Shown here piece by piece: positions 11,901 to 33,788 of a DNA stretch of 33,788 nt (position 1 is the first letter of the stretch; each line of letters begins with the position of its first letter). The notes beneath the pieces were generated by a model, which did not search any database, was not told the DNA's origin, and saw nothing but the letters and a program-made list of their open reading frames with translations. The DNA comes from Spirochaetaceae bacterium (lineage in GTDB: Bacteria; Spirochaetota; Spirochaetia; DSM-27196; Alkalispirochaetaceae). A program made the translations under genes and the position numbers. The stretch is from contig REEH01000154.1 in the NCBI GenBank assembly GCA_007695175.1, positions 1 through 33,788 of the forward strand, in the 5' to 3' direction.

Positions 11901-12589
11901 TAGCGCAGGGAGGGAAGGTGAGCCAGAACCCCGATATCGGTGACGCCGCTTTCGCGGAGGTTCAGATGCTCCAGCGCCACCATCAGGCGCAACGGTTCCA
12001 GATCGCCTCCGGCCAGGTCCGTCTCCCGCAGGTCCAGAAGGCGCAACCCCGTGAGACCGGCCAGTGGTTCCAGGTCCCGGATCGCGGTATTGCGCAGGGA
12101 GAGCTCCCGCAGGAGCGTAAACGTGGCGAGCCCGCCCGCGTCACGGAAGGTGGTATTGCCCTCCAGATCAAGCCGATGCAGCGTGACCGATTCAGCAAGT
12201 ACCTCCAGGTCCAAGTCGGATGCGCTTTGCAGTCCGCACGCACGCAGGCGCAGTTCCTCGAGCCGAGGGAGCTCGCCCAGAGGGGCGAGGGAGGTGGGCG
12301 TCGTCCCGGACAGGTCGAGGGTAATCACGTTGGGAAGGAGGGAGATGTCCCGGAGATCGGTTATAGCGTACCCTGACGCATCCAGGTGGGTTATACGGTC
12401 GAGCTGCTGTTGCCGGAGGGCGCCCCGCGGTTGCTGGAGCGTGGCTCGTATCGCCTCCTCCAGGGCGGGATCTGATATCCTCACCTCGCCTCCCACGAGA
12501 CTGAGCGCCCCATAGGCCACGAGAAAGATCGCCAGCGCGACCGCGGCGGTAATGGCCATGCGGCGTACCCGCAGGAGGGGATCGGTCAT
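8966..12589 (-). CDS. CotH-kinase-family protein with leucine-rich repeats and lamin-tail domain
   Basis: The 1207-residue product has one N-terminal membrane anchor (about 12-33), leucine-rich repeats (about 60-310, in the style LRELSLRNTAIRDLEPLAGL), a lamin-tail domain (about 345-465: LINEVMTSNGSTLADS, PDWMELHNPGEEPVSLEG), a chitobiase/Fn3-like segment (IYYTLDGSRPDP, about 538) and the CotH kinase domain (about 660-980). CotH hallmarks are VRIHGGWSRSHPLKSLRLY, GIKNMRERFDRFYLE and WRWHTWDFDNAF with the metal-binding Asp952/Asp954. A C-terminal InlB-repeat-like piece ends the protein. CotH proteins are atypical kinases that phosphorylate secreted proteins. The anchor places the domains outside the inner membrane. 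It is coupled by a 4-nt overlap to the VTC gene, with GGAG upstream. Residues 420-430 come from a tandem DNA repeat. Confidence 0.88.
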   Translation of the reverse strand: MTDPLLRVRRMAITAAVALAIFLVAYGALSLVGGEVRISDPALEEAIRATLQQPRGALRQQQLDRITHLDASGYAITDLRDISLLPNVITLDLSGTTPTSLAPLGELPRLEELRLRACGLQSASDLDLEVLAESVTLHRLDLEGNTTFRDAGGLATFTLLRELSLRNTAIRDLEPLAGLTGLRLLDLRETDLAGGDLEPLRLMVALEHLNLRESGVTDIGVLAHLPSLRYLNLHSSRDITGLEALRSLTRLHTLILRNVPLGDEIDLIAGMRSLQRLNIRNTGVRDLDVLAELLGRGALREEVDIRDNPVRGSADRGPYGYDVLLPYWDTIARRYPARLPRIPTGEVLINEVMTSNGSTLADSAGNHPDWMELHNPGEEPVSLEGVTVSLGEGWAERHRGWTFPAGTSIAPGSHLLLFASGASPASGASPEDAPPPELHASFTLASGGTEIVLTRDYGRTLLDRVEVPAIPRDTSWGRRAGESPAAGWTNFLDPTPGESNREARTYQGITFSRPGGFYRDAFELELSLADPDADPSLAIYYTLDGSRPDPASVEAGRDEGERPWRYRDHERDEYVERSSRTLRYTGPVRVESSSSIIEGDAPGHSLAELSTTVPEAEFWQWQPPEHPGFRATVIRAVTWDGKERGNVYSAAYFVEPRVEQLFPLGVVSIMADPEALFGYDEGIYVPGRIYEEYREEEELWMRRPANYRERWEVPAHIEFYEPDGYRGLALDGGVRIHGGWSRSHPLKSLRLYARKDHDRRNYFEYHLFPGAAGTATRYKRLMLRSGQSLFRSHLQDAVAHSHVRPYVEVDLLEYRPVIHFINGEYWGIKNMRERFDRFYLEALYGVDPEEVIIIDGPLAFDVQLDTGRPGENRPFRELLSFVERADMESEENYRRVRSVMDVDSFIDYNILRIFSGDADGVTKHVAMWRVRRDYDPEAPPGLDGRWRWHTWDFDNAFMFLENRTMTFYGNDRTDQEHLEAHLDELGEVYRSEEIDSELLGDEAVLRSAAGIRTRDPRYTALLAGLLGNRDFRVRFINRFADLMNTLYRPEIHAEAIGEAAALLEPEMERHIRRWGYPASPAYWRAQVDANMEFARRRPAVQREHILEYFAERGGEINGTARLTVDLRGAGGTVRVNSVLLEGDMPGSNTDAAGLWEGIYFTGIPLELEAIPAKGYRFGGWEAGTEDDSLKRLVLERDRTVTPRFTAY
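11301..11335. repeat. 18-bp tandem repeat inside the CotH gene
   Basis: Two adjacent copies of GGGGAGGCCCCGGAGGCC (the second lacking its last base) encode a duplicated Ser-Gly-Ala-Ser-Pro-Ala stretch in the lamin-tail domain. The unit is a multiple of three, so copy change would keep the frame. Confidence 0.8.
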
Positions 12590-13362
12590 ACCACACTCCG
12601 GGGCGTGACCATGTAGGGCCGGACGATTTCGATCCCCTGAACGTACTTGCTGTTGGATACCACTTTCAGCACCTGATTGCGTACGATATGGCGAAGCCAG
12701 TCGGGCTCGAACCGGGAGTTCGTCTTGATCTCCAGGACGATGCTGCGCGGCCGGTGCGGTTTGAGCAGCGGATCCCGGGGAAAGAGCTCCCGGGCGCGAC
12801 AGCTGTGGACATTGTGATCCAGCGTGAGTCGTACCGGGAGACCGTCCCGGGAGCGGTACCCCTCGCGCAGGTACTGTACCAGGAGCGTCGGAACGAGTCC
12901 CCGTACGTGGTACAGCCTCTGAAACTCCTCCAGGACCGGGTCCGGGGGAGCGCTCTCGCCGGCGCAGCCCCGGGAGCGGCCCCAGGAGCGGCTCACCAGA
13001 AAGTGCTCGTACTCCCGGTAGTCGGCAAAAGAGCTGTACTTGGTCATGGAGTTGCCCTTTTTCGTCTTCAGCTCAACCCGCACCGGCGGCGACGCTCCCG
13101 GATTGTCTCCGTACACGCGGAACCGCAGCTTGATCCGGCCGTAGTTGCCCTCGTTGCGTTCGTGAAAGGCGGAGAAATCCCGCGTATCGTAGTAGAGACT
13201 GCGGACGAGGTAGCGGCCACCGGCGCGGATGGTATACGTGTCGGGCACCATGAAAGCGCGCACGATGTTACGCACCGATTGATACTGTCCCGGCGTGAGG
13301 TGGTATTTCCGTTCAAAACGCTCGGATGTGCTCAAAACAGACTCTCCCGGCGGACGCCTCAC
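12586..13362 (-). CDS. VTC-domain (polyphosphate-polymerase-like) protein
   Basis: The 258-residue product matches the VTC/CYTH-like tunnel fold: FERKYHLTPGQY at the start, YLVRSLYYDTRDFSAFHE, KLRFRVYGDN, VELKTKKGNSMTKYSS, and a late LEIKTNSRFEPDWL. In yeast Vtc4 this fold makes polyphosphate from ATP using basic residues lining the tunnel; the bacterial proteins near CotH are not well characterised, so polymerase activity is inferred. The GTG at 13362 overlaps the upstream stop (GTGA). An in-frame TTG at codon 10 has GGGAGAG before it and is an equally good start. It sits between DUF4956 and CotH in a coupled operon, a grouping that recurs in bacteria. Confidence 0.85.
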   Translation of the reverse strand: MRRPPGESVLSTSERFERKYHLTPGQYQSVRNIVRAFMVPDTYTIRAGGRYLVRSLYYDTRDFSAFHERNEGNYGRIKLRFRVYGDNPGASPPVRVELKTKKGNSMTKYSSFADYREYEHFLVSRSWGRSRGCAGESAPPDPVLEEFQRLYHVRGLVPTLLVQYLREGYRSRDGLPVRLTLDHNVHSCRARELFPRDPLLKPHRPRSIVLEIKTNSRFEPDWLRHIVRNQVLKVVSNSKYVQGIEIVRPYMVTPRSVV

Positions 13363-14069
13363 ATGGGGAGCGTCAGCTGTGGCGTGAGGAGCGAGACCTT
13401 GCCGACGCCCGGGACCTCCCGGATCACCTCCACGATCTGCTGGATACGCCGCTCCAGCTTCCGGTCAAATCGGAACTCCCAGGTGAGTTCCCAGGAGTCT
13501 CCATCGATCTCGTGACTGCGCAGCTGAACCTGCGCTCCCGTCCCGGTAACGATCTCCTCCAGCGCGCCGTAATCATAGGGCATGCCCCCCGCCACGATGA
13601 GGATATACTCCACGTGCAGCTGCCGGCCGTACTTCACCAGGTAGAAAAGCGTCAGCAGCAGGGCGATGAGGATCGCCGCCAGAACGGTAAAAGTCCAGTT
13701 GAGCGTGCCCGCACCGAGGCCCGTAGCGATCGCCCAGAAGAGAAAGACCATGTCCCGCGTATCCTTGATGGGCGTACGAAAGCGGATGATCGAGAGCGAT
13801 CCCACCAGTCCCAGGGAGAGAACAAGATCGCCCTGGATAAAGAACATCACCACCGTCACGATCGGCGTCAGCAGGACCAGCGTCGTCAGGAAGCCCGCGT
13901 CGTAATTGAGCCCGCGATGCGTATAGCGATACACCGTGGCGATGGCAACCCCGAGAACGACCGCAATAAGGATGGAAATCCCGAAGTTGATCAGTTGATC
14001 CGGTGGGATGAGGATGATTCCTGTTATTCGGTTCAAGATGGCCCCCGGAGAACGATTATAACGGAACAT
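13359..14069 (-). CDS. DUF4956 membrane protein
   Basis: The product (236 residues from ATG 14069) has about four membrane helices in its first 150 residues, including FGISILIAVVLGVAIATV, then VLSLGLVGSLSIIRFRTPIKDTRDMVFLFWAIATG, the signature of DUF4956. A soluble ferredoxin-like tail follows (about 165-236). The family accompanies VTC and CotH genes and probably forms a membrane platform for them; its chemistry is unknown. ATG 14069 has no ribosome binding site and a TATAAT box lies just inside it (14055-14060), so the TTG at 14036, preceded by GGGGG, may be the real start and fits the family N-terminus. The frame remains open to 14615 but that part is antisense to the patatin gene and is not credible. 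It leads the operon. Confidence 0.85.
   Translation of the reverse strand: MFRYNRSPGAILNRITGIILIPPDQLINFGISILIAVVLGVAIATVYRYTHRGLNYDAGFLTTLVLLTPIVTVVMFFIQGDLVLSLGLVGSLSIIRFRTPIKDTRDMVFLFWAIATGLGAGTLNWTFTVLAAILIALLLTLFYLVKYGRQLHVEYILIVAGGMPYDYGALEEIVTGTGAQVQLRSHEIDGDSWELTWEFRFDRKLERRIQQIVEVIREVPGVGKVSLLTPQLTLPM
14055..14060 (-). promoter_or_regulatory. Consensus -10 box of the DUF4956-VTC-CotH operon
   Basis: A perfect TATAAT on the minus strand. A TGTCAA/CTGTCA element 17-18 nt upstream is a weak -35. If used, transcription starts near 14048, downstream of ATG 14069, which favours the TTG start at 14036. Confidence 0.45.
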
Positions 14070-14182
14070 TACCGAGTTTGACAGATTTTTTTCATCTTCC
14101 GCGGTGCCCGATACGGAACCGGCCAGTATGGTGTCGACCATGCTCCGAAGCCGCTCGTGGTGCTCTTTGACGAGGTGGACGT

Positions 14183-14216
14183 GTTGCGGGACGATTTTTA
14201 TCCGCCGGTTTGAAAA
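14183..14216 (+). repeat. Left copy of the islet-flanking direct repeat
   Basis: This 34-nt sequence matches 16213-16247 at 32 positions with two mismatches and one indel (five versus six T). It starts with a 17-nt identical block, GTTGCGGGACGATTTTT. The two copies lie in the same orientation and enclose the AT-richer patatin/toxin-antitoxin islet. Confidence 0.85.
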
Positions 14217-14265
14217 GCCGCAGGCCACGTAATACTTTCCGGCGATCGGCATCGGGGCGGAATAC

Positions 14266-15423
14266 CTACATAACCGAATAGTGCTCCACCACCGCATCCC
14301 ATCCCGCTCTGTATAAACGGGTGAAATCGGGATCCGCACCGCGAAGTGCGTTCTGGAGATCGATCGCTTCCAATACGGGAATCCGGATCTCTTCCACCTC
14401 GCAGGTGACACGATCGCTATAGATCGCAGGTGATCCTGTGGCGTTGATCGCGATGATCCGGTCCGGTCTGAAGGCCGAAAATGCTTCTTCGATCGGAACC
14501 GCCGACATTCTGTCCGATCCCGGATCGACATAGGATAGATCAGTGCCCTTGAAGATATAGGGATTGTTGATGCTCCGCGACACGGCTTCCGCCAGGTTGC
14601 CCCTCGTCGAAACAACGAGTTCGATTCCTTCTCCTTCCTTGCGCATATAGGATGTTCCGAACTCTATCTCCGTATCCTCCATCATCGTATGGTCGAGGTA
14701 CACATCAAGTGTCCGACTGAAACGCTCATGACTGATCAAGGGCTCCGCCCGGTTGCCCACTATCCAGCCGGCAGCGGCGGCCGCCACCGCGACCAGGCCG
14801 ATTCCCCCGGTGGCTATCGCCGCGGCAACGCTTCCCAGTATTACACCGGTCGATATTGACCTCGTTCTGTCTCTTCTTGTTGTCTCTTCATAATCGCTCA
14901 GCAGAGTCCGATATCGGCCCGAGAGCGATTCGTCCGGCGCCGTCACATACAGACTGCCGACTAAGGCGCCCATGCTGTTTCCGTATACGTAATCAGGCTG
15001 CCGGCGACGATGCCCAATGAGCGCATCCAATGCGCCCATATGTGAAAGGCCGTTAACGCCCCCGACGGAGAGGACCAGACAAACGCGTTCCCGACGGAAC
15101 GATACGTCAACGTTTCGGTCGCTATTAATTACCTCAAGAGTAATGATATTCGATGATGCAACCTGGACTCCATCAATGGTAACGGAGTCGACGAGGTACC
15201 CATCATCGGGTGTTATTATGATCCGTTGCGTATTACCTTCCGTGATTTGAAAGCGACCATCAGGATCGGTGGTACCCCCGTTGGAACTTTGAATTGAGAT
15301 CCAGAATTTCTGTTGTACCGTGGGAATTGGCTGGTCATAGGTAATAGTGGTACAACCGACCAGTGACACAATAATTATAATCAAAACTACTTTTTTTGAT
15401 ATCGCTAATAATTCACGGAGCAT
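14266..15423 (-). CDS. Divergent patatin-like lipoprotein
   Basis: The 385-residue product has a lipoprotein signal peptide (VVLIIIIVSLVGC, lipidated Cys24), an InlB-repeat-like domain (about 38-110: DDGYLVDSVTIDG) and a patatin-like domain (about 113-385). The latter shows VLSVGGVNGLSHMGALDAL as oxyanion-hole glycines, then YGNSMGALVGS with nucleophile Ser150. The partner Asp is probably Asp300 in YVDPGSDRMSAVPIEEA, where patatins normally read Asp-Gly-Gly/Ala. A hydrophobic Ala/Gly-rich segment (192-224) interrupts the domain. Patatins hydrolyse lipid acyl esters; placement on the cell surface or periplasm follows from the lipobox. Base composition and codon use are clearly more AT-rich than neighbours, suggesting transfer. 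It is divergent from the AbrB-Doc pair. A -10 box ends 9 nt before the ATG. Confidence 0.75.
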   Translation of the reverse strand: MLRELLAISKKVVLIIIIVSLVGCTTITYDQPIPTVQQKFWISIQSSNGGTTDPDGRFQITEGNTQRIIITPDDGYLVDSVTIDGVQVASSNIITLEVINSDRNVDVSFRRERVCLVLSVGGVNGLSHMGALDALIGHRRRQPDYVYGNSMGALVGSLYVTAPDESLSGRYRTLLSDYEETTRRDRTRSISTGVILGSVAAAIATGGIGLVAVAAAAAGWIVGNRAEPLISHERFSRTLDVYLDHTMMEDTEIEFGTSYMRKEGEGIELVVSTRGNLAEAVSRSINNPYIFKGTDLSYVDPGSDRMSAVPIEEAFSAFRPDRIIAINATGSPAIYSDRVTCEVEEIRIPVLEAIDLQNALRGADPDFTRLYRAGWDAVVEHYSVM

Positions 15424-18635: not shown

Positions 18636-18669
18636 GAGGGGGACCCGGGGAGGGGCCGCCCCCTCACGC
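18630..18669. terminator. Shared hairpin between convergent symporter and PHP-DUF294 genes
   Basis: GCGTGAG followed by G-rich bases (18630-18642) pairs with the complementary C-rich stretch ending CTCACGC (about 18658-18669). Both genes end with GCG TGA, and both stop codons lie in the stem. There is no T-tract, so termination strength is uncertain; it may serve both strands or protect 3' ends. Confidence 0.5.
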
Positions 18670-21600
18670 GGTACCGCGAAAGTCGTAACTCACCTTCTTC
18701 TGGATCGCGTGGATCCGGGAGAGGGTGTTCTTCACCGTACCCGATTCGATCTGCGTCAGCGCCCTCGGATCGACCAGATTGTTCGGCTCCTTTCCCTCCC
18801 GGATGAGTCCGACCTGGTGACGGTAGCGGAGCCGCATCAGGTAGTCGTAGGCCTGTAGCGTTCCACGAAAACTTTCCTCCTTCAGGACACCCAGCGCGTG
18901 GAGCTGCTCCAACCGGTCAAAGGTATTGGTCTCGGAGAGATGGTTCCGGAGCGCGTAGAGCCGGGCAAAGTTGACGATCGGCAGCATCGCTCCCTTGATA
19001 TCAAAGGTGTTCGCCCCTTCTCCGGAGGAGGTCGTCACGATCTGTCCGAAGAGCCCGATGGGGGGCTTGTAGTGCAGCGTATTGAGCGCCATGTGGGAGA
19101 AGAAGGCGGGGTTCTGCTCCAGCTGCCGGTCCACGTGCTGCCAGAGCTCCCGCACCAGGGATCGATCTCCATGAATGCATCGCAGATCGAAGAAGACGTT
19201 GCAGTGCGCCAGGGCGGTACCGTCCGGTTCCACGATCCAACCGGTAAAAGAACGTTTCCAGTCTTCCAGGGTGCGGTTCCACCGCGCGTCCCGCGCCATG
19301 GCCTCACCCTCACAGAGGGGATACCCCACCTGCTCCAGGCCCCGGCAGACCAGTTCACCCAGGCGCAGGAAGTAGGCGGCGCAGACCTCGGAGGCGTCGC
19401 CGCTACCGTCGGCGGCGCCGGTACCGCCGCCGGCGTGAGCGTTGTCGCCGGGAGCGTCGCAGCCGCTACCGCCGCCGCGGGGCTGATAGATTATGGCATT
19501 GTCCTGGTCGGTCACCAGGGTCTGTTCCTCCCGCGCTTCGCTGCCCAGAGCAACGAACGCGAAGGGCGCCGGCGGCGGACCCAGCTCCTCGGTGGCCAGG
19601 ACGATTACCCGCTGGGCTATCGCGTCGGACACCGCCGTGGTGACGTGACAGATGTTCTCCGAGGATGCGCCTGAATCCACCAGGGAGCCCACGAGCACGG
19701 GCAGCTTCTCGTGGCAGTCCGCCAGATCGTCCACGGAGGCGGCGTTGGCGATCAGCTTGAGCAGCACCACCGGCGAGTATTCGTCCAGCCGGACGGTGCG
19801 GTTGCTGCGGATGATTCCGGTGAGAACACCGGCGGAATCGGTTACGACCAGGTGATCCACGTCGTGGTTTCTCTCCAGCAGAAAGGCCTCGAAAACGGGC
19901 GAGGTTTCACTGATCGTGATGACCGGGGCGCTCATGATCCGTGAAACGGGTATGCGCGCGTCCAGCTCCGCCGCCACCACGCGCCGGCGAATATCGTGAT
20001 CGGTCACGATGCCGATGGGCTCTCCTCCGCTGCCGGTCACGACCACCGCCTCCGCGCCGTGGCGGCCCATGAGACGAACAGCTTTGGTTACGGGTGTGTC
20101 CAGGGAACAGGAAACGGCTTCGTTCATGCTGTTACGCACCTGCTCGGTGAGAAAGAGCAGCGAGGTCTGGAGCTGGGAAATAAGCGTCTCCCGCTGCGCC
20201 TCGGTTCTGCGGCGTTCGGAGATATCCTCCATGATGGCGTCACAGACCGGGGAAGATTCTCCGTCACTCTCAGCGAGAACCGCCGAGAGGCGCACCGTCC
20301 GGAGTTTTCCCGAACCGCTTCGGACCTGGACGATCATGTCCCGGACCGCTCCGTCCGTACGGAGACGCTGCAGAAACTGCCGGCTGCTTTCCTCGGTAGC
20401 CATGAGGTCCTGAAAGGAGAGGGGACCGCTCCATCCATCCTGGAGGCCAAAGATACGCTCCGCCGCGGGGTTCATCTCGATGAGGGGCATCTCGTCCTCA
20501 AGCACCATCCGGAAGACTCCGCTGGAGATATTGCGCGCCAGCGCCTCGTACTTGGCGCGGCTCTCGCCCAGGGCGGTGCGCATCGCCCGGTGATGGGAAA
20601 TATCCTGAACGCTGAGGATGACGCCGCCCCGGCCGGAGAAGAAGACGGCCGTGGAGGATATGAGTACCGTCTCCGGCGGTGCGTCCCTCGGTTTCAGCTG
20701 TACTTCAAAGGGTTCCCGGATCTCCTCTCCCGCCGCGATGCGGCGGAGCTTCTCCGCGGCCTTCCTGCGTTCCTCCTCGTCGTGATCGGCCGCGTCGGGG
20801 GTGATGATATCGGAGAGATCGAGCAGGGCCAGCTCCGCCACGGTATACCCCAGCATCTCCAGCATGGGCCGGTTTGCGTAGGAACAGTGTCCGTCCACCA
20901 GGAGAAGCGTCCCCGCGACGGAGGACTCCACCAGGAGGCGATAGCGCTCGTGGGACAGCTGCAGGTCCCGCTCCGCTTCACTGCGGCGCCGCTCCAGTTT
21001 GAGGCTCTGCTGCGTGATAAGAACGAGCAGCGCTCCCGCGAGGATCGTCACGATGAAGGACGCGTCGATCATGCGGCTGGTGATCGCCGCGATTTCCCGC
21101 TTCACATCGTCCTCGTAGAGACCGGTGCCGATGATCCAGCCCCAGGGCTCAAAGCCCCGCACGTAGGAGTCTTTTGCCTCCAGCCGCTCCGGATCATCCT
21201 GCCACTGCCACACGTAGCGCACGTAACCGGAGGAGCGGTCCCGCACGGCCTGGACAAACTCCACGAAGGGCCGCACCCCGTCGGGATCGGTAAATCCGGT
21301 CAGGTCCGAGCCCTCCAGATCCGGCCGGTAGGGGTGCATGACCATGCGGGGATGCATGTCGGTGATCCAGAAGTAGTCCAGCTCGTCCGGTCCGTAGCGC
21401 AGGCGCCGGATCCGTTCGACCGCTGCCGCCTGGGCCTCTTCCAGGGAGAGGTTTCCCTCCCGGACCTCCCGATCGTAGTCGGAGAGAATGCTCCAGGCGG
21501 AGTTGGTCAGTTCCGCGGTCATTTCCCTTTTCCGCTGCAGCAGCAGTTCTTCCACGGTGGGGATGAGCACCGCAAAGAGAAGCGTCACGAAGAATCCGAT

Positions 21601-22338
21601 AACCAGGAGTGAGGGAAGGACTATGCGCGGGAGGAGCCACCGCCAGTCTATCCGCGCCTGAGGTGGGTGGATCGTCGCCGTCTCCCCGGCGGGAGGAGCG
21701 GTGTTCCGGGAGTTGCCGAGACTGCGGCGAAACTCTTTCCAGCGCTCCTCCGGGATAGCTTCTCCCGGCTCGCCTCCATCGGAGTTCCCGGTGCCGTGAA
21801 AATCGCTCCCGCCGGTGGTGAGGAGGTTGTGCCGGTCCGCCAGGCCGAGCAGGTATTGCCGCTCTTCCTCCGAGTATGGTTTGTAGAATACCTCCAGCCC
21901 GTCCAGGCCGCGCTCCACCAGTTGCTCCAGGACCGGTTCCAGCTCGGACCGGTCCGGTACGGTGTGGAGGGGGTGAGCCAGCACGACGACACCGTGCGCC
22001 TCGTGGACGGCGGCGATCGTTTCCGCCGCACTGACGGTGCGGCTGAACAGACGCTGCATGATCTCGTCGGCCGGGTCAAAACCGTAGGCGAGCAGGTGTA
22101 CCTCCCGGCTCTCCAGCCGGGCGAAGAGTTCAGCGCCGGTAATGCTCACCACTCCCCGCCGCGCCGCTTCCTCCCGGAAGAGGGCCGAGCCCGCCGCGGT
22201 CTGATGATCCGTGAGCGCCGCGAAGGAGACGCCCCGGCGCGCCAGGAGCTCCGCCACCACCTCCGGGGTGTAGTAGCCGTCACTCCGGTCGGAGTGACAG
22301 TGCAGGTCCACTTTCACGAACGAGTCATGACGCGTCAT
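18664..22338 (-). CDS. PHP - Cache - PAS - PAS - CBS - DUF294 nucleotidyltransferase fusion sensor
   Basis: The 1224-residue product joins seven parts. A PHP phosphoesterase (1-205) has all metal motifs: DLHCHSDRSDG (D11/H13/H15), LTDH (D44/H45), GAE (E70), AHP (H122) and GGSDFHG (D179/H181). Helix one (237-262), a periplasmic single-Cache domain (265-415, YFWITDMHPRMVMHPYRPDLEG) and helix two (423-443) follow. Then come PAS domains (465-585, 595-710), a CBS pair (745-850), and a DUF294 GlnD-like nucleotidyltransferase with GSEAREEQTLVTDQDNA (932-947) plus its C-terminal helical domain (to 1224). A Gly-rich stretch (954-983) interrupts the transferase. Known DUF294 proteins have CBS and cyclic-nucleotide domains; a PHP at the N-terminus is unusual. 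A TATAAT ends 6 nt before ATG 22338. It is convergent with the symporter. Confidence 0.85.
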   Translation of the reverse strand: MTRHDSFVKVDLHCHSDRSDGYYTPEVVAELLARRGVSFAALTDHQTAAGSALFREEAARRGVVSITGAELFARLESREVHLLAYGFDPADEIMQRLFSRTVSAAETIAAVHEAHGVVVLAHPLHTVPDRSELEPVLEQLVERGLDGLEVFYKPYSEEERQYLLGLADRHNLLTTGGSDFHGTGNSDGGEPGEAIPEERWKEFRRSLGNSRNTAPPAGETATIHPPQARIDWRWLLPRIVLPSLLVIGFFVTLLFAVLIPTVEELLLQRKREMTAELTNSAWSILSDYDREVREGNLSLEEAQAAAVERIRRLRYGPDELDYFWITDMHPRMVMHPYRPDLEGSDLTGFTDPDGVRPFVEFVQAVRDRSSGYVRYVWQWQDDPERLEAKDSYVRGFEPWGWIIGTGLYEDDVKREIAAITSRMIDASFIVTILAGALLVLITQQSLKLERRRSEAERDLQLSHERYRLLVESSVAGTLLLVDGHCSYANRPMLEMLGYTVAELALLDLSDIITPDAADHDEEERRKAAEKLRRIAAGEEIREPFEVQLKPRDAPPETVLISSTAVFFSGRGGVILSVQDISHHRAMRTALGESRAKYEALARNISSGVFRMVLEDEMPLIEMNPAAERIFGLQDGWSGPLSFQDLMATEESSRQFLQRLRTDGAVRDMIVQVRSGSGKLRTVRLSAVLAESDGESSPVCDAIMEDISERRRTEAQRETLISQLQTSLLFLTEQVRNSMNEAVSCSLDTPVTKAVRLMGRHGAEAVVVTGSGGEPIGIVTDHDIRRRVVAAELDARIPVSRIMSAPVITISETSPVFEAFLLERNHDVDHLVVTDSAGVLTGIIRSNRTVRLDEYSPVVLLKLIANAASVDDLADCHEKLPVLVGSLVDSGASSENICHVTTAVSDAIAQRVIVLATEELGPPPAPFAFVALGSEAREEQTLVTDQDNAIIYQPRGGGSGCDAPGDNAHAGGGTGAADGSGDASEVCAAYFLRLGELVCRGLEQVGYPLCEGEAMARDARWNRTLEDWKRSFTGWIVEPDGTALAHCNVFFDLRCIHGDRSLVRELWQHVDRQLEQNPAFFSHMALNTLHYKPPIGLFGQIVTTSSGEGANTFDIKGAMLPIVNFARLYALRNHLSETNTFDRLEQLHALGVLKEESFRGTLQAYDYLMRLRYRHQVGLIREGKEPNNLVDPRALTQIESGTVKNTLSRIHAIQKKVSYDFRGTA

Positions 22339-24236: not shown

Positions 24237-26321
24237 CTACTCATGGCCTTTCTCTCGTGCCGCGAGGCGCACCAGGCGGTCCACATCCAGTACCAGCGCC
24301 GGTGTGCCGTTGCCCAGCATGATGGCGCCGGATATACCTTCCACCTTCTCGTAGATACGTCCGAGCGACTTGATCACCGACTGGTACGTGTCCTGGATCT
24401 CATCCACCACCAGGCCGACGCGCTTGTCATCCACCGAGACGACGATAAGCTGCTGCCCCCCGTTTTTCTCCGCTGTGCCCTTGATCCGGAAGTAGCGCCG
24501 CATATCCACGAAGGGCACGATACCACCGCGGTATGACGCGTATCCCCGGCGGTTTTCGTGATCCATCGTATCGAAATCGAGGCACTCCTCGATGTAGGAG
24601 AGATTGACCAGGTACCAGTTACGGTCCACCCGGGCGAGCAGACCCTCCACGATCGCCAGCGTCAGGGGGATGCGGATCGTTACCGTGCTGCCTTCACCTG
24701 TTCGGGACGCGATACGGACGCTCCCTCCCAGCTGTTCAATGTTGCGCTGCACCACGTCCATGCCCACGCCGCGACCGGAGACGGCGGTTGTCTGCTCGGC
24801 GGTGGAGAAACCGGGTGCAAAGATGTACTGCAGGATTTCTTCCTCGCTGCGGTCGCTCTCGGCGGAGAGAACGCCCCGTTCGATCGCTTTGGCCCGGATG
24901 CGTTCCACGTTCATCCCGGCACCGTCGTCACTCACGCGTATGACCACGTGGGCGCCCGCGTAGGATGCTGCGAGCTTGAGCGTACCGGTGGGACTCTTGC
25001 CGGCGCCGGTGCGAATTTCCGGAGTCTCGATCCCGTGATCGACGCTGTTCCGGACGATGTGCATGAGCGGGTCCTTGAGCAGATCGATCACGTTCTTGTC
25101 CAGCTCCGTCTCGCTACCCTCGGTGATGAGGCGCACTTCCTTGCCCAGATTGGAGGCCAGGTCACGGACCAGGCGCCGGTACCCGTTGAAGAGGCCGCTC
25201 ACCGGCACCATGTGCATCTCGATGGATAGGTCGCGCAGTTCCCGGATGAGCCGGTCCATCTGCTCGCCCACGGCAATAAAGTCGCGATCATCCTTCTGCT
25301 GGGCGGTAAAGACCACATTGGCGTGCATGGAAACAAACTCGCCCACCAGATTGACCAGGCTGCTCAGTTTATCCGTCCCGACCCGGATCGCATTGGAGGA
25401 TTCCGCCGTCTGGCGGGACTCGCGCATGGATCGAACGTAGCGCTGCTCTTCCAGCGCGGCGTGGACGCGCTCGCTCGAGACGAAGCCCTTCTCCACCAGG
25501 GTCTGGCCGAGAAAGGCGCGTTCATTGACCGACTGCTCCAGCGCCTCCGCGGTTATGTCGCCCCGTTCCAGCAGAATCTCCCCCAGGCGTTTGTAGGGCA
25601 GGTCACTGTCGGCAACCTCGTCCACCAGGGAGATTTCCAGGTCCGCGTCGTCCTCCACGAACATGAATACGTCCCGGATCGCCTGTTCATCCGCCGTGGT
25701 GGTAAGGAGCACCTCCCAGGCGAGGTAGCACTCCGTGGGATCGATAGAGGACAGCTCCGGAATACCGTCGGAAAACCCGAGTACCAGGATGGTGCCCAGC
25801 TCCTCCATCTCCCGGATCAGCAGCAGGGGGTTGGCTCCATGCCGGAAGAGGATCGGTTTCGGACGGAACAGTATCCGCCACGTTCTCTCCGATTGCGCCT
25901 CCGCCGATTGTCCGGCGGCGGGTGAGGCGGCGCCGTCTCCCTTCTCCGGCAGGTAGGCGAGGAAGGCCTGCTCCAGAAGAGCACCCTCGCTCTGGAGCTC
26001 CGGATCATCCCCGTGCTCCAGGAGAGCGAGAAGGTGGTCCCGGGCCTGAAGACCCAGGGAGATAATCCTGGATTCAACGTGAAGGGTGCCGTTCCTCATC
26101 AGATCAAAGACCGATTCCACCACGTGGGCAAAGTGCACGAGCGATCCCAGATCGAACATACCCCCGGAACCCTTGATCGTATGGAGGCTGCGGAAAGCGG
26201 CGGCGATCATCTCCTGGTCCGCGGGATCTTCCTCCAGGGCCAGAAGGCTTTCCTCGAGCACCACGAGCTGTTCTTTTGCTTCCTCCCGGAATGTCTCCAG
26301 CGGATCGGCGTGTATGCTCAT
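24237..26321 (-). CDS. cheA: CheA chemotaxis histidine kinase with a tandem MshEN-like motif
   Basis: The 694-residue product has the HPt domain (1-125) with phospho-accepting His47 in SLHTIKGSGGMF. Next is a P2-like region (145-235), then a helical module reading RLGEILLERGDITAEALEQ and FLGQTLVEKGFVSSERVHAALEEQ (245-293). Dimerisation (about 308-370), ATPase (375-555; N box HIVRNSVDHGIE, G1 DDGAGMN, G2 GRGVGMDVV) and a CheW-like domain (555-690) complete it. CheA phosphorylates CheY in response to receptors. The 245-293 pair resembles the MshEN/GspE-N motif (RLGxxLxxxG repeated), which in other proteins binds c-di-GMP. Length and order are otherwise standard. It lies between the STAS gene (10-nt gap) and cheW (5-nt gap). 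Confidence 0.93.
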   Translation of the reverse strand: MSIHADPLETFREEAKEQLVVLEESLLALEEDPADQEMIAAAFRSLHTIKGSGGMFDLGSLVHFAHVVESVFDLMRNGTLHVESRIISLGLQARDHLLALLEHGDDPELQSEGALLEQAFLAYLPEKGDGAASPAAGQSAEAQSERTWRILFRPKPILFRHGANPLLLIREMEELGTILVLGFSDGIPELSSIDPTECYLAWEVLLTTTADEQAIRDVFMFVEDDADLEISLVDEVADSDLPYKRLGEILLERGDITAEALEQSVNERAFLGQTLVEKGFVSSERVHAALEEQRYVRSMRESRQTAESSNAIRVGTDKLSSLVNLVGEFVSMHANVVFTAQQKDDRDFIAVGEQMDRLIRELRDLSIEMHMVPVSGLFNGYRRLVRDLASNLGKEVRLITEGSETELDKNVIDLLKDPLMHIVRNSVDHGIETPEIRTGAGKSPTGTLKLAASYAGAHVVIRVSDDGAGMNVERIRAKAIERGVLSAESDRSEEEILQYIFAPGFSTAEQTTAVSGRGVGMDVVQRNIEQLGGSVRIASRTGEGSTVTIRIPLTLAIVEGLLARVDRNWYLVNLSYIEECLDFDTMDHENRRGYASYRGGIVPFVDMRRYFRIKGTAEKNGGQQLIVVSVDDKRVGLVVDEIQDTYQSVIKSLGRIYEKVEGISGAIMLGNGTPALVLDVDRLVRLAAREKGHE

Positions 26322-28498: not shown

Positions 28499-28541
28499 AT
28501 GCAATTTGCATTGAAATACGCATTGCCATGCATTCTGCATC
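28498..28541. repeat. Cluster of ATGCA/TGCAT motifs
   Basis: Within 44 nt, five ATGC-type pentamers occur, including the 13-nt palindrome ATGCAAATTGCAT (minus strand) and an outer dyad GATGCA...TGCATC. It overlaps the stop codon of the TPR/barrel gene and abuts the terminator. It may fold as an RNA 3' structure or bind a protein. Confidence 0.45.
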
Positions 28542-31500
28542 ACCTGGTGAGGAGGCTGAAATTGCGTCCCACCACCGCAAAGGTTACGCCAATGTCGTAG
28601 TACCCGCCGTCGTCGGGAAAGGATCCGATGTCGCCGGAGCCGAGGACGCGGCTCCCCGAGAGGCCCAGCTGGAAGGCAACATTGCGCCGTGTCAGTTCAC
28701 CGGTGAGCCGCCCCACGGCGCGTATGGCCGGGTCATCCTCACCCTCACCGATTCGCGTCTGGTAGTACCCGCCGTAGAGGGAGCCTGTGACGCCCCAGCT
28801 TGTGTCGGTGGCGATGGGCCGATAGGCCTGCCAGTCAAGGCGGAGTCCCGTGTCGAATACCTTGTCCGGCCGGTAGTACCACCGGCTTTCCTCCCCCTGG
28901 TAGTCCTCGAATTCCGTGGTCACGGCGAGTCCGATCCGCGTCAGGGGTTCCGGCCGCCGGAGGATTGCGTAACGGAACTCCTGGGCCAGGCGATACCGTA
29001 CGCCCTCCACGGAACCATCCGCGGTGATCGCCTCCGCGACGCCGCCGGTGCGCTGGCTGTAGCGCGTCCAGACCGGGTCCGGTCGGCCCCGGAGATCCCA
29101 GGAGAGATCGCTGCGGAGCATGTGGGAACGGAAGATGGGGCGTTCCAGCTGCGATGTTTCCGGCGGTATATCCAGGTTGGCCGTGTAGACGCCAAAGCGG
29201 TAACTGCCCGCCAGGTAGAGCTCCCGCGTGCTGAACTCCCACCGCAGCCCCGGTTCCGGTTCCAGCTGGTACGTTCCGAAGAGGTCCGCCCCGTCCCAGA
29301 TCTCGATGGGTGACTCCGGCCGGGAGCCGTAGTAGAGGTTGTGAGCTACCAGGCGTGCCCCGAGGACAGGCTCCAGTGTAAAGCGGTCCGGCCGGAGGTG
29401 GAAGGGCACTCCCACGCGCACCGCGTAATCCTGGTATACGGAGCGGCGGACATAGGCGACGGCGATCGTCTCGTCCTGGAAGAAGTCCGGTATTCTCGTT
29501 CGTACCGTTCCCGATTCCAGCGATCCCCGGATGCCGTACCGGGAGTTGACGCGCCAGAGATACTCCATGGTCGTCCGCGTTTCCTGCCGCTGCGGCTCGG
29601 TTATCACGGTGGTGCTGCCCCAGAATTCGTCCGCGTACTGACGGGCGATCTGGTTGTGCAGGGCGATCGTATTGCGAAAGGTGCTGTCGCGCCGGTGTAT
29701 CGAGGCGAAGAGGTCCTGCGCACGCCGCCACTGGCCCTGTCGCCGGTAGGCCTGGGCCAGAATGTAGAGCGTCGCCAGGTTGTCCGGGTCTACCGCCCGC
29801 ACCAGTTCCAGCTGCTCCACCGCGCCGGCCAGGTCATCCTCCTCGATCAGCAGTTCTCCCAGACGGTTGCGTTCCGGGGCGGTGTTGGTCTGCAGGTAAA
29901 AGAGGGCGAGCTCCGTGGTTTTGCCCAGTATGTCCCGGAAAAGAAGGTCATGCTGCTCCAGCGTGCGCAGCGTGAGGGCCAGCTCACCGGAAAGGCGTGC
30001 GCCCTCTTCCGCGAGCGTTGTCGCCGCGTCCAGGTCGAAGATCCACTCCGGCGCCGGTTCCCCGTCGGCCCCGGGCGTGCCCAGGCGTCGGCCCGCCGCG
30101 CCGCGCATGAGTTCCGAGAAGACCAGCAGGGAAGCGGGTATTGATTCCGCCGCCCGGACCTCCTCCTCGAGATCGTACCAGAGGCGTACCGCTGCTGCCC
30201 GGCCCAGATGTCGTGCGGTCAGGGCAAGCAGAACGGGGGCTTCCTTCCGGAGGGCGCGCCGCTCATTCTCATCCTCCGATGCGGCGACCTGTGCGATCTC
30301 CGCGGGAGCGGGGGGATCCGGTGAGGGACCGGCCAGGGTGGCAAGTATTCTGGCGGTGCGCCGGTTGTTGCGGATGTCCGAGGCACGGTTGAGTTCCTCC
30401 ACCAGGATTTCCAGGGGCGGTTTCCAGTTCAGGCGCTCCCGGAGCGCCTCCAGCTCCGAGGTGCGCGCGTCCCGGTATTCCCCGGCGGATTCCACCACGG
30501 GTTCTATCGCGCCGGTGTAGAGGTCCCGAACGGTTGTGGCGATCCGGATCGCCTCGCTCAGGCGCGCAGCGGTAGTAGTGATTGTTGCACGGGTGGGAGC
30601 CAGGTCCGCTCCCTCCTGCTGCTGCAGGGTGCGGTAGGTCTGCACCGCCGCGACGAGCGCCGCCGAATCGGCGGCTATCTCGCCCGGAAGGGGGCGCATC
30701 AGGTACTGGGCGAGGGTATTGTACACGCCCTTCCAGGTGTGTTCCTCCACGTCCGCCCATTCCGCGTGCAGCGTCCGCTGCGTCTGGGCTGCCAGCAGGT
30801 TGCGATATACCCGGATTCCCTCCGCCCTCCGGCCGATCCAGAAGTAGGTCTGGGCCAGTTCCGCCCGGGCGACAAGATCGTCCGGGTCTTCCAGAACGGC
30901 TGCCTCAAACCCTGCGATGACCTCCTCCCGGAGGCTGAAGCGACTCTCGATGCGGGCCATCGCCTCCGCCGCGGGGGGAAGGCGCTGTTCCACGGTCCGG
31001 CGGTGCTCTCGCGCATCCTCGGTCTTGCCCTGCCGGAGCAGCACGGAGTAGAGCTGTTCGGCTATTTCCAGAGAATCGGGGAAGGTACGCAATCCCTCCC
31101 GGTAGAGCGCCTCCTCCCGCTGCGGTGCCTCGTTGATGCGATACTCCGCTCCCAGGGCCAGGACGGCGGCGGGGGAGTCAACCCGGCGTTCCGCCCGGGC
31201 AAAATACTCCCGGGCCTGCTCCTCCCGGTCCCACCAGAGATAGGTGAATCCGAGGTTCACCAGGAGGCGCGGATCATTGCTGTGATGGGAGAGCCCCGCC
31301 AGGAAGTACTGCTCGGAGGCACCGAGAAAACCGCTCCAGGCGGCGATCTTTCCCGCCTCGAGAAAGGTATCGATCCGATCGGGAGCGGCGGACACGAGGT
31401 CCCAGTACGCGCCGAGTCCCCCCTCCAGGTCGCCGCGCCAGATCGTGTTTCGCGCGATTGCCTGCAGGAGCGCCGGATTGCGCGCCTCCAGGATCTGGGC

Positions 31501-32292
31501 CCTGCCCAGGTAGCGCAGCGCGTTGATATGATCTCCCACGAGGGTGTAGAGGTGAGCAAGCTGCAGGTAGGCCTGGATGTTGGTCGGTTCGTCCCTGAGA
31601 AGGATCAGCAGATCCTCGATACTCTCCGGTTCGTCCAGGAGATCTTCCTCCGCCGGAAGAAGGGGGGTGGTGACTCCCTCCGGGACGAGTACAAATCGAT
31701 CCAGGTACAGAAAAAACCTGGAATCATAGCGGCGACGCTGATCCACCGTTACACGGAGGCGCTGTTCCCCGGCGTCCAGGTTGACGCTGCCCGCCCGGAT
31801 CCATCGGTAGGGGGTGGAGTAGACGGGGCCGGAGCGGATACCCTCCGCGGTGATCGTGATCGGCTCCTCTTCGTTGATCGTTATGTTGAAGGGTGATCCA
31901 TAGGACGCGAGCAGAGGATCGGCCGCCCCCGGGAGGGACCCGCCGTACCACAGCTCGTACTCACCGGCCTCATCGGCCACGAAAACGAAGTCGGCGTAAT
32001 AGGGCGCATCGCTGAGGAGGGACGTCTCGTTGAGCTGAAGCGCCAGGTTGCCCCCGGCGCCGAAGAGCTGCACCGGTTCCGGCGCGAAATTGGTCGATAC
32101 CGCGTCCTGGCCCTCTATCACGATTGCCGCACGCGTCGGCTGCTCATCCGCAGCGTCAACGGCATCCACCGGGTCAACGGCATCCACCGGGTCCGCCGCG
32201 TCCACTGCCTCCTGTGCGAAGAGCGGCGAGGCCACGGCCAGAAGGAAGATCGCAACCGACGCCATCACTATTCTGCGAATACGCTTGCTCAT
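28540..32292 (-). CDS. TPR and outer-membrane beta-barrel protein, PelB-like, with N-terminal CBM-like domain
   Basis: The 1250-residue product has a signal peptide (SVAIFLLAVASPLFAQ), an Ala/Asp/Val repeat linker, a carbohydrate-binding-like beta-sandwich (about 55-205: YYADFVFVADEAGEYELWYGG, IRAGSVNLDAGEQRLRVTVD), many TPR-type helices (about 220-890, e.g. AYLQLAHLYTLVGDHINALRY, PRLLVNLGFTYLWWDREEQAR), and a C-terminal beta-barrel of roughly 350 residues ending in FSLLTR. TPR scaffold plus barrel is the plan of exopolysaccharide export porins PelB, PgaA and BcsC; length is close to PelB (about 1190). It would guide a polysaccharide across the periplasm and outer membrane. The divergent GAF gene resembles PelD, supporting Pel. 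The CBM-like domain is an addition. Alternatively it could be a generic TPR outer-membrane protein. Confidence 0.78.
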   Translation of the reverse strand: MSKRIRRIVMASVAIFLLAVASPLFAQEAVDAADPVDAVDPVDAVDAADEQPTRAAIVIEGQDAVSTNFAPEPVQLFGAGGNLALQLNETSLLSDAPYYADFVFVADEAGEYELWYGGSLPGAADPLLASYGSPFNITINEEEPITITAEGIRSGPVYSTPYRWIRAGSVNLDAGEQRLRVTVDQRRRYDSRFFLYLDRFVLVPEGVTTPLLPAEEDLLDEPESIEDLLILLRDEPTNIQAYLQLAHLYTLVGDHINALRYLGRAQILEARNPALLQAIARNTIWRGDLEGGLGAYWDLVSAAPDRIDTFLEAGKIAAWSGFLGASEQYFLAGLSHHSNDPRLLVNLGFTYLWWDREEQAREYFARAERRVDSPAAVLALGAEYRINEAPQREEALYREGLRTFPDSLEIAEQLYSVLLRQGKTEDAREHRRTVEQRLPPAAEAMARIESRFSLREEVIAGFEAAVLEDPDDLVARAELAQTYFWIGRRAEGIRVYRNLLAAQTQRTLHAEWADVEEHTWKGVYNTLAQYLMRPLPGEIAADSAALVAAVQTYRTLQQQEGADLAPTRATITTTAARLSEAIRIATTVRDLYTGAIEPVVESAGEYRDARTSELEALRERLNWKPPLEILVEELNRASDIRNNRRTARILATLAGPSPDPPAPAEIAQVAASEDENERRALRKEAPVLLALTARHLGRAAAVRLWYDLEEEVRAAESIPASLLVFSELMRGAAGRRLGTPGADGEPAPEWIFDLDAATTLAEEGARLSGELALTLRTLEQHDLLFRDILGKTTELALFYLQTNTAPERNRLGELLIEEDDLAGAVEQLELVRAVDPDNLATLYILAQAYRRQGQWRRAQDLFASIHRRDSTFRNTIALHNQIARQYADEFWGSTTVITEPQRQETRTTMEYLWRVNSRYGIRGSLESGTVRTRIPDFFQDETIAVAYVRRSVYQDYAVRVGVPFHLRPDRFTLEPVLGARLVAHNLYYGSRPESPIEIWDGADLFGTYQLEPEPGLRWEFSTRELYLAGSYRFGVYTANLDIPPETSQLERPIFRSHMLRSDLSWDLRGRPDPVWTRYSQRTGGVAEAITADGSVEGVRYRLAQEFRYAILRRPEPLTRIGLAVTTEFEDYQGEESRWYYRPDKVFDTGLRLDWQAYRPIATDTSWGVTGSLYGGYYQTRIGEGEDDPAIRAVGRLTGELTRRNVAFQLGLSGSRVLGSGDIGSFPDDGGYYDIGVTFAVVGRNFSLLTR
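32155..32208. repeat. 18-bp tandem repeat inside the TPR/barrel gene
   Basis: Two perfect copies (32155-32172, 32173-32190) of GTCAACGGCATCCACCGG are followed by a degenerate third copy. On the coding strand this gives Pro-Val-Asp-Ala-Val-Asp repeats in the linker after the signal peptide. The unit is a multiple of three, so copy change alters linker length only. Confidence 0.85.
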
Positions 32293-32401
32293 ATACCTTA
32301 GATGTACGGTAGATAGTTGGAATTATCAATAGTACCGCGGGAAGAGTATTCCCCCCGAAACGGTCAGGAAGACGCAGAAAAATGTCGATATTCTCCGTAT
32401 T

Positions 32402-33781
32402 GTGAGTGTTCTACCTGTCCCGATCCTGGTGCTGCTCTTTCTCCTTGACCTGCTCCTCCCGCACGCAGTCGGTTTTGTCGAACTCGCCGCCGTCCCCTAC
32501 GTCGGGATCGTCCTCGCCACCGTTGCTTTCTCCGGCGGCGTGGTGGCTCTCACGGTTGCGGCGGGATCGGTGCTCTGGATCATAGCCGCCGGTCCCATCC
32601 TCGCGGGGATAGGGCCCTTTTCCAGCTACGCGATTCCACTCTCCGCCGTGCCCATGGGAGCCCGTTACGGCGCGCTCCTCCTGGCGGCGGCGGGACTCTT
32701 CCTGGTGGATCGTGTGCGGAAGATGCGCCTCGAGCTGCGGGCGGGGGCGGAAACAATGCGCGACCTGGAATCGACGGCGGAGATGTTTCGAGCGGAAGCG
32801 CACGCCCTGAAGCTGATCCACACCCGGACGAGGAACCGCCTCGCCACGGAACGCTCGAGCATAACGATACTGCACGAACAGATTCAGCGCCTGCAGTCCT
32901 TTGACCGCACGCAGGTACTGGATGCGACGCTCACGGCCGTCAGGCTGATGACCGGAGCCACAAGCTGCGCGCTCTATCGCTTCCATGAGGAGACGCTGGA
33001 ACTGGAGCGTATGGCCCTGTGGCCCGCCCGGCATGACTCACGGTACCCCCAGATGAAAGCGGTGGCTTCCTCCATTGAGGGATACGTGGTGCGAACGGGG
33101 CAACCCTTCTCCCTGCGCAACCTGATCGACAACCCGGAACTGCGGGAACTGGAGGCGAGGAACGCGGTCATCTGCGTGCCGATCGTGACGAGGAATCAGA
33201 TATGGGGCGTGCTTACGGTGGGGCGAATTCCTTTTCTCTACTACAACGAACACGCTGAAAAGGCGCTGCAGGTGACCGCCGCTATCGTCGCGCCCGCCCT
33301 TGACCAGGCCCTCCCGCTGGTGTCCATGGAGGGGGCGGCGCAGCCGGCGCTCTTCTCCTACGACATGCTGCACGAGGCGCTCCAGGAGCGGCTGCACGCG
33401 GCCGGAGAACTGGGTTTCCACGTGATGGTCCTTCTGGTGGAGCTGCAGACATCGCTGGAGTTCAACGAGCAGATGGAACTCTCCCGCGCGGTGGGGGAGG
33501 ACATCGCCGGCCGGCTGGGGCAGGGCGTGGCGGTCTTTCAGTACCAGCAGGCGCACCAGCTTGCACTCGTTTCCGTGAGCACCCGGAGCGAGGCGGCGGG
33601 GTACCTGCTTCTACGCGTGACCGATCTGGTCAGCAGCAAAGCCTGGACTGTGGAGGACGAGACGGTCCTCCCCCGGACGATCATCGGGTTCGGCACGTCC
33701 GCTCAAAGCGGATATGACGTGACGGCCCTGCTGAACCAGGCGGAAACGATGCTGACGATCTACCGGAGAGCGCAAGGGTGA
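32402..33781 (+). CDS. Membrane GAF protein with degenerate GGDEF-like tail, PelD-like
   Basis: The 459-residue product has about four N-terminal membrane helices (1-102), a coiled-coil (105-168), a GAF domain (168-300: ATSCALYRFHEETLELERMALWP, VICVPIVTRNQIWGVLTVGR) and a C-terminal domain (315-459) that looks like a degenerate GGDEF fold. This is the architecture of PelD, the inner-membrane c-di-GMP receptor of Pel polysaccharide export. The region aligned with GGDEF reads YQQAHQLALV, and the expected I-site RxxD reads RLGQ (371-374), so c-di-GMP binding is doubtful; another RVTD occurs at 405-408. The start is GTG 32402; no upstream start exists in frame. It is divergent from the PelB-like gene; a further gene may begin at 33778. 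Confidence 0.75.
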   Translation: MSVLPVPILVLLFLLDLLLPHAVGFVELAAVPYVGIVLATVAFSGGVVALTVAAGSVLWIIAAGPILAGIGPFSSYAIPLSAVPMGARYGALLLAAAGLFLVDRVRKMRLELRAGAETMRDLESTAEMFRAEAHALKLIHTRTRNRLATERSSITILHEQIQRLQSFDRTQVLDATLTAVRLMTGATSCALYRFHEETLELERMALWPARHDSRYPQMKAVASSIEGYVVRTGQPFSLRNLIDNPELRELEARNAVICVPIVTRNQIWGVLTVGRIPFLYYNEHAEKALQVTAAIVAPALDQALPLVSMEGAAQPALFSYDMLHEALQERLHAAGELGFHVMVLLVELQTSLEFNEQMELSRAVGEDIAGRLGQGVAVFQYQQAHQLALVSVSTRSEAAGYLLLRVTDLVSSKAWTVEDETVLPRTIIGFGTSAQSGYDVTALLNQAETMLTIYRRAQG

Positions 33782-33788
33782 AACTGGT
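33778..33788 (+). CDS. Start of a possible downstream gene, truncated by the window edge
   Basis: GTGAAACTGGT overlaps the stop codon of the PelD-like gene as GTGA, the same coupling used elsewhere in this window. Only three codons are visible, so neither product nor reality can be judged. A Pel-like locus would place a PelE-, PelA- or PelF-like gene here. Confidence 0.3.

What the first reader, a model, noticed from the sequence alone, without database searches (positions are those of the whole stretch)
28540..33781. Divergent Pel-like exopolysaccharide export pair
A TPR/barrel protein of PelB size and plan is divergent, by 109 bp, from a protein with PelD architecture (four helices, coiled-coil, GAF, degenerate GGDEF). 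A third gene may start at the window edge. The added CBM-like domain on the PelB-like protein and the altered I-site (RLGQ instead of RxxD) suggest a variant system with different control.
Basis: partly seen in the sequence, partly recalled or inferred. Interest (0 to 1): 0.65.

Follow-up and report, generated by a model that had tools for sequence, protein, structure and literature searches.

The report
Spirochaete variant of Pel polysaccharide export
Two back-to-back genes at the end of this DNA piece belong to a spirochaete version of the Pel biofilm-sugar machine, in which the outer-membrane exit channel carries an extra sugar-binding-type domain and the usual c-di-GMP switch residues are missing.

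Summary
The window is a whole contig of a Spirochaetota genome. A 1250-aa protein (28540-32292, -) and a 459-aa protein (32402-33781, +) are divergent by 109 bp. The contig ends 7 bp after the second gene, but another contig of the same genome carries the end of a pelE-like gene, then pelF and pelG, both above curated cut-offs. Relatives show the intact order pelB<- | ->pelD-pelE-pelF-pelG. The large protein predicts as a CBM6/35-type sandwich, TPRs, and a barrel of about 16 strands whose best structural matches are PgaA, PelB and BcsC. The CBM-like domain is the most conserved part and is present in all homologues examined, essentially all Spirochaetota. None of 41 spirochaete PelD proteins has the RxxD I-site that all four reference PelDs have, although this genome has 14 GGDEF genes. 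No PelC was found in the genome or in any locus. PelA (DUF2194 type) follows pelB in a minority of loci, nearly all non-divergent, and is not found in this genome. Verdict: a new, lineage-wide variant of a known machine. Polymer identity and the role of the CBM-like domain are untested.

The parts
28540..32292 (-). PelB-like outer-membrane exporter, 1250 aa: signal peptide (...SPLFA|QE by eye), CBM6/35-like domain, TPR superhelix, barrel of about 16 strands
   Evidence: present next to pelDEFG in relatives
31636..32148 (-). CBM6/CBM35-like beta-sandwich domain (about residues 49-219), most conserved segment of the protein
   Evidence: AlphaFold2 pLDDT 92.7; Foldseek and VIA-align best matches CBM35/CBM6, Z 12-13.6; conservation 0.56-0.65 against about 0.27-0.39 in the barrel
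28543..29868 (-). last TPRs plus C-terminal beta-barrel
   Evidence: AlphaFold2 pLDDT 88.3; PgaA 4y25 Z 26.2, PelB 9h80 Z 22.9, BcsC 6tzk Z 22.2, next unrelated porin Z 18.8
32293..32401 (.). 109-bp divergent intergenic region, presumably holding both promoters; no sigma-70-like site found
   Evidence: gaps of 26-251 bp in most divergent relatives
32402..33781 (+). PelD-like protein, 459 aa: hydrophobic N-terminus, coiled coil, GAF (168-300), degenerate GGDEF without RxxD I-site
33778..33788 (+). likely start of pelE (GTG overlapping the pelD stop), cut by the contig end; the remainder of pelE, pelF and pelG are on contig C148 (L002)
   Evidence: order by synteny with L036, L037, L040
27445..28332 (-). 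Pel-associated lipoprotein (lipobox VLGSC), downstream of pelB
   Evidence: family recurs near pel clusters in many relatives, some copies with a C-terminal Laminin_G_3 lectin-like domain

Best explanation
This is the exporter/regulator end of a synthase-dependent Pel-type exopolysaccharide system of spirochaetes, with the cluster order pelB <- | -> pelD-pelE-pelF-pelG. By homology, PelF polymerises a sugar-nucleotide into a polysaccharide in the cytoplasm and PelD-PelE-PelG form the inner-membrane complex that passes it to the periplasm. The CBM6/35-like domain at the N-terminus of PelB catches the emerging chain and feeds it along the acidic TPR groove into the barrel and out (inferred). Pseudomonas PelB instead carries an N-terminal hydrophobic segment thought to stay in the inner membrane, so the CBM-like domain may replace that tether as the receiving end (inferred). 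PelD has lost the RxxD I-site, so control by c-di-GMP at that site is unlikely; the GAF domain, another ligand or a protein partner would have to switch it (inferred). Shown here: gene content and order, predicted folds, I-site loss, and no detectable PelC or PelA in this genome. Inferred: polymer type, CBM ligand, handover mechanism and regulation.
For: PelF and PelG in the same genome above curated cut-offs. Conserved divergent pelB|pelDEFG order: 30 of 54 loci divergent, 7 with pelB directly after pelG, most others cut by contig ends (a few loci are the same contig fetched twice). PelD profile match. Barrel matches the three exopolysaccharide secretins above all other barrels. CBM fold, best conserved region, present in every homologue examined. 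No RxxD in 41 spirochaete PelD against 4 of 4 references. 14 GGDEF genes in the genome.
Against: Spirochaete PelB aligns with reference PelB only over generic TPRs (80%, E 1e-5); PgaA scores higher than PelB structurally, so 'PelB' rests on fold plus gene context. Pfam's PelD_GGDEF does not ring in any of 11 spirochaete PelD. The pelD and pelEFG contigs are joined by synteny only. Without PelA, the polymer need not be deacetylated Pel.
Confidence: 0.82

Rival explanations
1. Another synthase-dependent system (PgaA- or BcsC-type) whose secretin merely neighbours the pel genes.
For: PgaA has the highest structural Z (26.2 against 22.9 for PelB) and BcsC is tied with PelB; the TPR-barrel layout is shared by all three.
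Against: Partner genes are PelF and PelG by curated models; pelB is adjacent to pelD or pelG in 38 of 54 loci. No PgaA or BcsC model reaches its cut-off.
Confidence: 0.07
2. An ordinary c-di-GMP-controlled Pel system: PelD binds c-di-GMP by another route and PelA and PelC functions are supplied by unrecognised proteins, for example the associated lipoprotein.
For: 14 GGDEF genes; a Pel-linked lipoprotein family recurs; the PelB conduit stays acidic, as expected for a cationic, deacetylated polymer; an arginine near the second I-site arginine is kept in close relatives.
Against: RxxD absent from 41 of 41. A PelA profile rings on spirochaete DUF2194 proteins but not in this genome; the PelC profile rings only at E 0.6. 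The single CE4-type protein found looks catalytically dead by eye.
Confidence: 0.3
3. A decayed or non-functional pel remnant.
For: Cluster is split over two contigs; PelA and PelC not found.
Against: All frames are open and conserved across many genera, and the same gene set recurs.
Confidence: 0.03

Closest known systems
pelABCDEFG of Pseudomonas aeruginosa
   Same: PelF, PelG, PelE-like and PelD-like genes in order; TPR-barrel exporter of the same size class
   Different: exporter gene divergent; CBM-like domain plus cleavable-looking signal peptide instead of the N-terminal hydrophobic segment (PMC12141448); no RxxD; no PelA or PelC detected
pelDEA(DA)FG of Gram-positives and Fusobacteriota (PMC7112168; L112 here)
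   Same: core pelDEFG; streptococcal PelD also lacks the c-di-GMP-binding part; DUF2194 protein as PelA deacetylase candidate in some spirochaetes
   Different: has an outer-membrane exporter; GGDEF domain kept but I-site lost; DUF2194 absent in this genome
PgaA and BcsC exopolysaccharide secretins
   Same: TPR superhelix and barrel fold
   Different: partners are PelF/PelG, and no CBM-like domain is described for them (own knowledge)
CBM6/CBM35 carbohydrate-binding modules
   Same: fold, Z about 13
   Different: found at the periplasmic end of an exporter, not on a secreted enzyme; ligand residues not tested

Membership tests
Pel biosynthetic system | PelF GT4 glycosyltransferase | tested here: met
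   NF038011 338 bits, cut-off 100, on C148
Pel biosynthetic system | PelG transporter | tested here: met
   PF16933 195.6 bits, cut-off 29, on C148
Pel biosynthetic system | gene order pelD-pelE-pelF-pelG | tested here: met
   intact in relatives L037, L040, L041, L045; in this genome split over two contigs
Pel biosynthetic system | PelA deacetylase/hydrolase | tested here: not met
   PF09960, PF03537 and a PelA profile find nothing in this 97%-complete genome; present beside pelB in about 13 spirochaete loci
Pel biosynthetic system | PelC lipoprotein | tested here: not met
   best E 0.6 in genome; none in any locus, while reference loci ring
PelD | TM helices, coiled coil, GAF, degenerate GGDEF | tested here: met
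   exact number of TM helices not resolved
PelD | RxxD I-site for c-di-GMP | tested here: not met
   0 of 41 spirochaete PelD, 4 of 4 references
PelD | Pfam PelD_GGDEF match | tested here: not met
   0 of 11, against 3 of 4 references
PelB | TPR superhelix and exopolysaccharide-type barrel | tested here: met
PelB | sequence orthology to proteobacterial PelB | tested here: inconclusive
   hhalign 80% over TPRs only
CBM6/CBM35 | beta-sandwich fold | tested here: met
   predicted model:
CBM6/CBM35 | glycan binding | not testable with these tools
   needs a binding assay; sequence profiles give only weak CBM_6 hits in 3 of 47
Pel polysaccharide | partially deacetylated alpha-1,4-GalNAc product | not testable with these tools
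   needs chemistry

The most novel reading that the evidence does not exclude
Spirochaetota carry a distinct class of Pel-type export in which a carbohydrate-binding domain built into the exporter receives the nascent chain, PelC is dispensed with, PelA is often absent, and PelD is switched by something other than c-di-GMP at the I-site.
Probability: 0.4. Interest if true: 0.65.

Novelty: new variant of a known kind. Interest (0 to 1): 0.5.

Why it matters
Searching the held literature found no description of Pel in spirochaetes. The variant separates features thought to go together in Pel: an exporter without PelC, synthesis without PelA, PelD without its c-di-GMP site. How the polymer passes from the inner-membrane complex to the exporter is an open question, and a CBM-like domain fixed at the receiving end of the TPR path is a directly testable answer.

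Tried and rejected
CotH-VTC-DUF4956 cassette in the window (8966-14615), the accessory set reported beside Gram-positive pel (PMC7112168): rejected as part of this system, since it lies 13 kb away and VTC occurs in 3 of 12 PelD-positive against 17 of 49 PelD-negative relatives. The CBM-like domain as a stand-in for PelA: rejected, because DUF2194-bearing loci have it too. Charge of the exporter as a test of PelA presence: acidic in both classes, not informative. Promoter scan of the 109-bp gap: nothing; the intergenic DNA alignment gave no convincing motif. CE4-type protein on C61 as PelA: by eye it lacks the catalytic Asp and His motifs. One genome search was wasted on a wrong accession.

Full report
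What is there. The window is the entire contig C26 of a 3.7-Mb, 97%-complete genome in 256 contigs. Close relatives are named Spirochaeta/Spirochaetales MAGs. The contig ends 7 bp after the pelD-like stop, so the claim could not be settled from the window.

The missing genes. A search of the same genome with curated models finds PelG (PF16933, 195.6 bits) and PelF (NF038011, 338 bits) side by side on the 3.5-kb contig C148. The rest of C148 is the 3' part of a pelE-like gene, starting about 28 codons in, judged by the relative L036. Relatives L036, L037, L039, L040, L041 and L045 carry the contiguous order pelB <- | -> pelD pelE pelF, with pelG where the contig is long enough and a lipoprotein gene nearby in most. 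So C26 and C148 are almost certainly neighbours, but that join is by synteny.

How widespread. A scan of GTDB genomes with the PelB alignment gave 55 loci, in Spirochaetota where the record title names a group; a few titles say only 'bacterium'. Of 54 loci analysed, 30 are divergent pelD|pelB (one more has overlapping gene calls), 7 have pelB directly after pelG on the same strand, and most of the rest are cut by contig ends. In an even draw of 393 Spirochaetota genomes, 25 have the CBM-like domain. The scan patterns came from this family, so absence from other phyla is only suggested.

The exporter. N-terminus: signal peptide by eye, then a domain that AlphaFold2 predicts as a beta-sandwich (pLDDT 92.7), matching CBM35 and CBM6 structures at Z 12-13.6. 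Sequence profiles alone barely see this. It is the most conserved stretch of the protein over 49 homologues and every homologue examined has it. C-terminus: TPRs and a barrel of about 16 strands; the five best structural matches are PgaA, PelB and BcsC entries, Z 21.5-26.2, with the next barrel at 18.8. Sequence comparison with proteobacterial PelB is weak outside the TPRs, so the name PelB rests on fold plus gene context.

The regulator. Profile-profile comparison with four reference PelDs, fetched from annotated plasmids, aligns 374 columns at 97%. All four references have RxxD; none of 41 spirochaete proteins does. The exact residues facing the I-site depend on the alignment: by hand, RLGQ in this protein falls on RGAD of Pseudoalteromonas. 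The genome has 14 GGDEF genes, so c-di-GMP is probably made, but PelD is unlikely to read it by the known site. In B. cereus that site is required for c-di-GMP binding and biofilm formation, as in P. aeruginosa (PMC7112168).

PelA and PelC. A DUF2194 gene sits in the deacetylase position of a Fusobacteriota pel operon (L112), and a proteobacterial PelA profile rings on spirochaete DUF2194 proteins, which follow pelB in about 13 loci, almost all not divergent in the stretch held. This genome has no DUF2194, GH114 or PelA-profile match; the PelA-profile genome search had no positive control genome of its own, the two Pfam searches did. PelC was not found in the genome or in any spirochaete locus.

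How it most likely works. PelF makes the chain, PelD-E-G passes it across the inner membrane (from the known system), the CBM-like domain receives it and the TPR groove and barrel lead it out (inferred). A lipoprotein family next to many clusters, some with a lectin-like domain, may help at the outer membrane or anchor the polymer (inferred).

Verdict. Novelty: new variant of a known kind.

Noticed in passing
window 8966-15423 (-): CotH (with LRR and LTD), VTC and DUF4956 genes in a row, then a patatin-like gene: the accessory cassette known beside Gram-positive pel, here 13 kb from pelB and not correlated with PelD in relatives.
   Followed up: yes
window 24237-26321 (-): CheA with an MshE-type c-di-GMP-binding motif at residues 245-293 (NF053729, 39.3 bits, cut-off 38), in a chemotaxis/STAS gene group near the pel genes.
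   Followed up: no
window 18664-22338 (-): 1224-aa fusion of PHP, single Cache, PAS, CBS and DUF294 domains, an unusual combination.
   Followed up: no
L098 10007-14920; L099 9668-14581: 1637-aa relatives with the CBM-like domain and TPRs but with FlgD_ig and OmpA domains towards the C-terminus, next to a DUF2194 gene and downstream of flagellar-type genes; no pelDEFG in view. About ten more genomes have 1.6-kaa versions.
   Followed up: partly
L044 8007-11444: pelD-pelE followed by a 455-aa gene with no Pfam match (GT-like by eye), without PelB or PelG, in a genome that also has a full cluster (L045).
   Followed up: partly
L066, L071, L078, L081, L082, L087, L088, L090-L093, L100-L102 and others: An HDOD-domain gene of about 284 aa sits beside pelB or pelD in roughly 20 loci, a candidate regulator of the I-site-less PelD.
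   Followed up: partly
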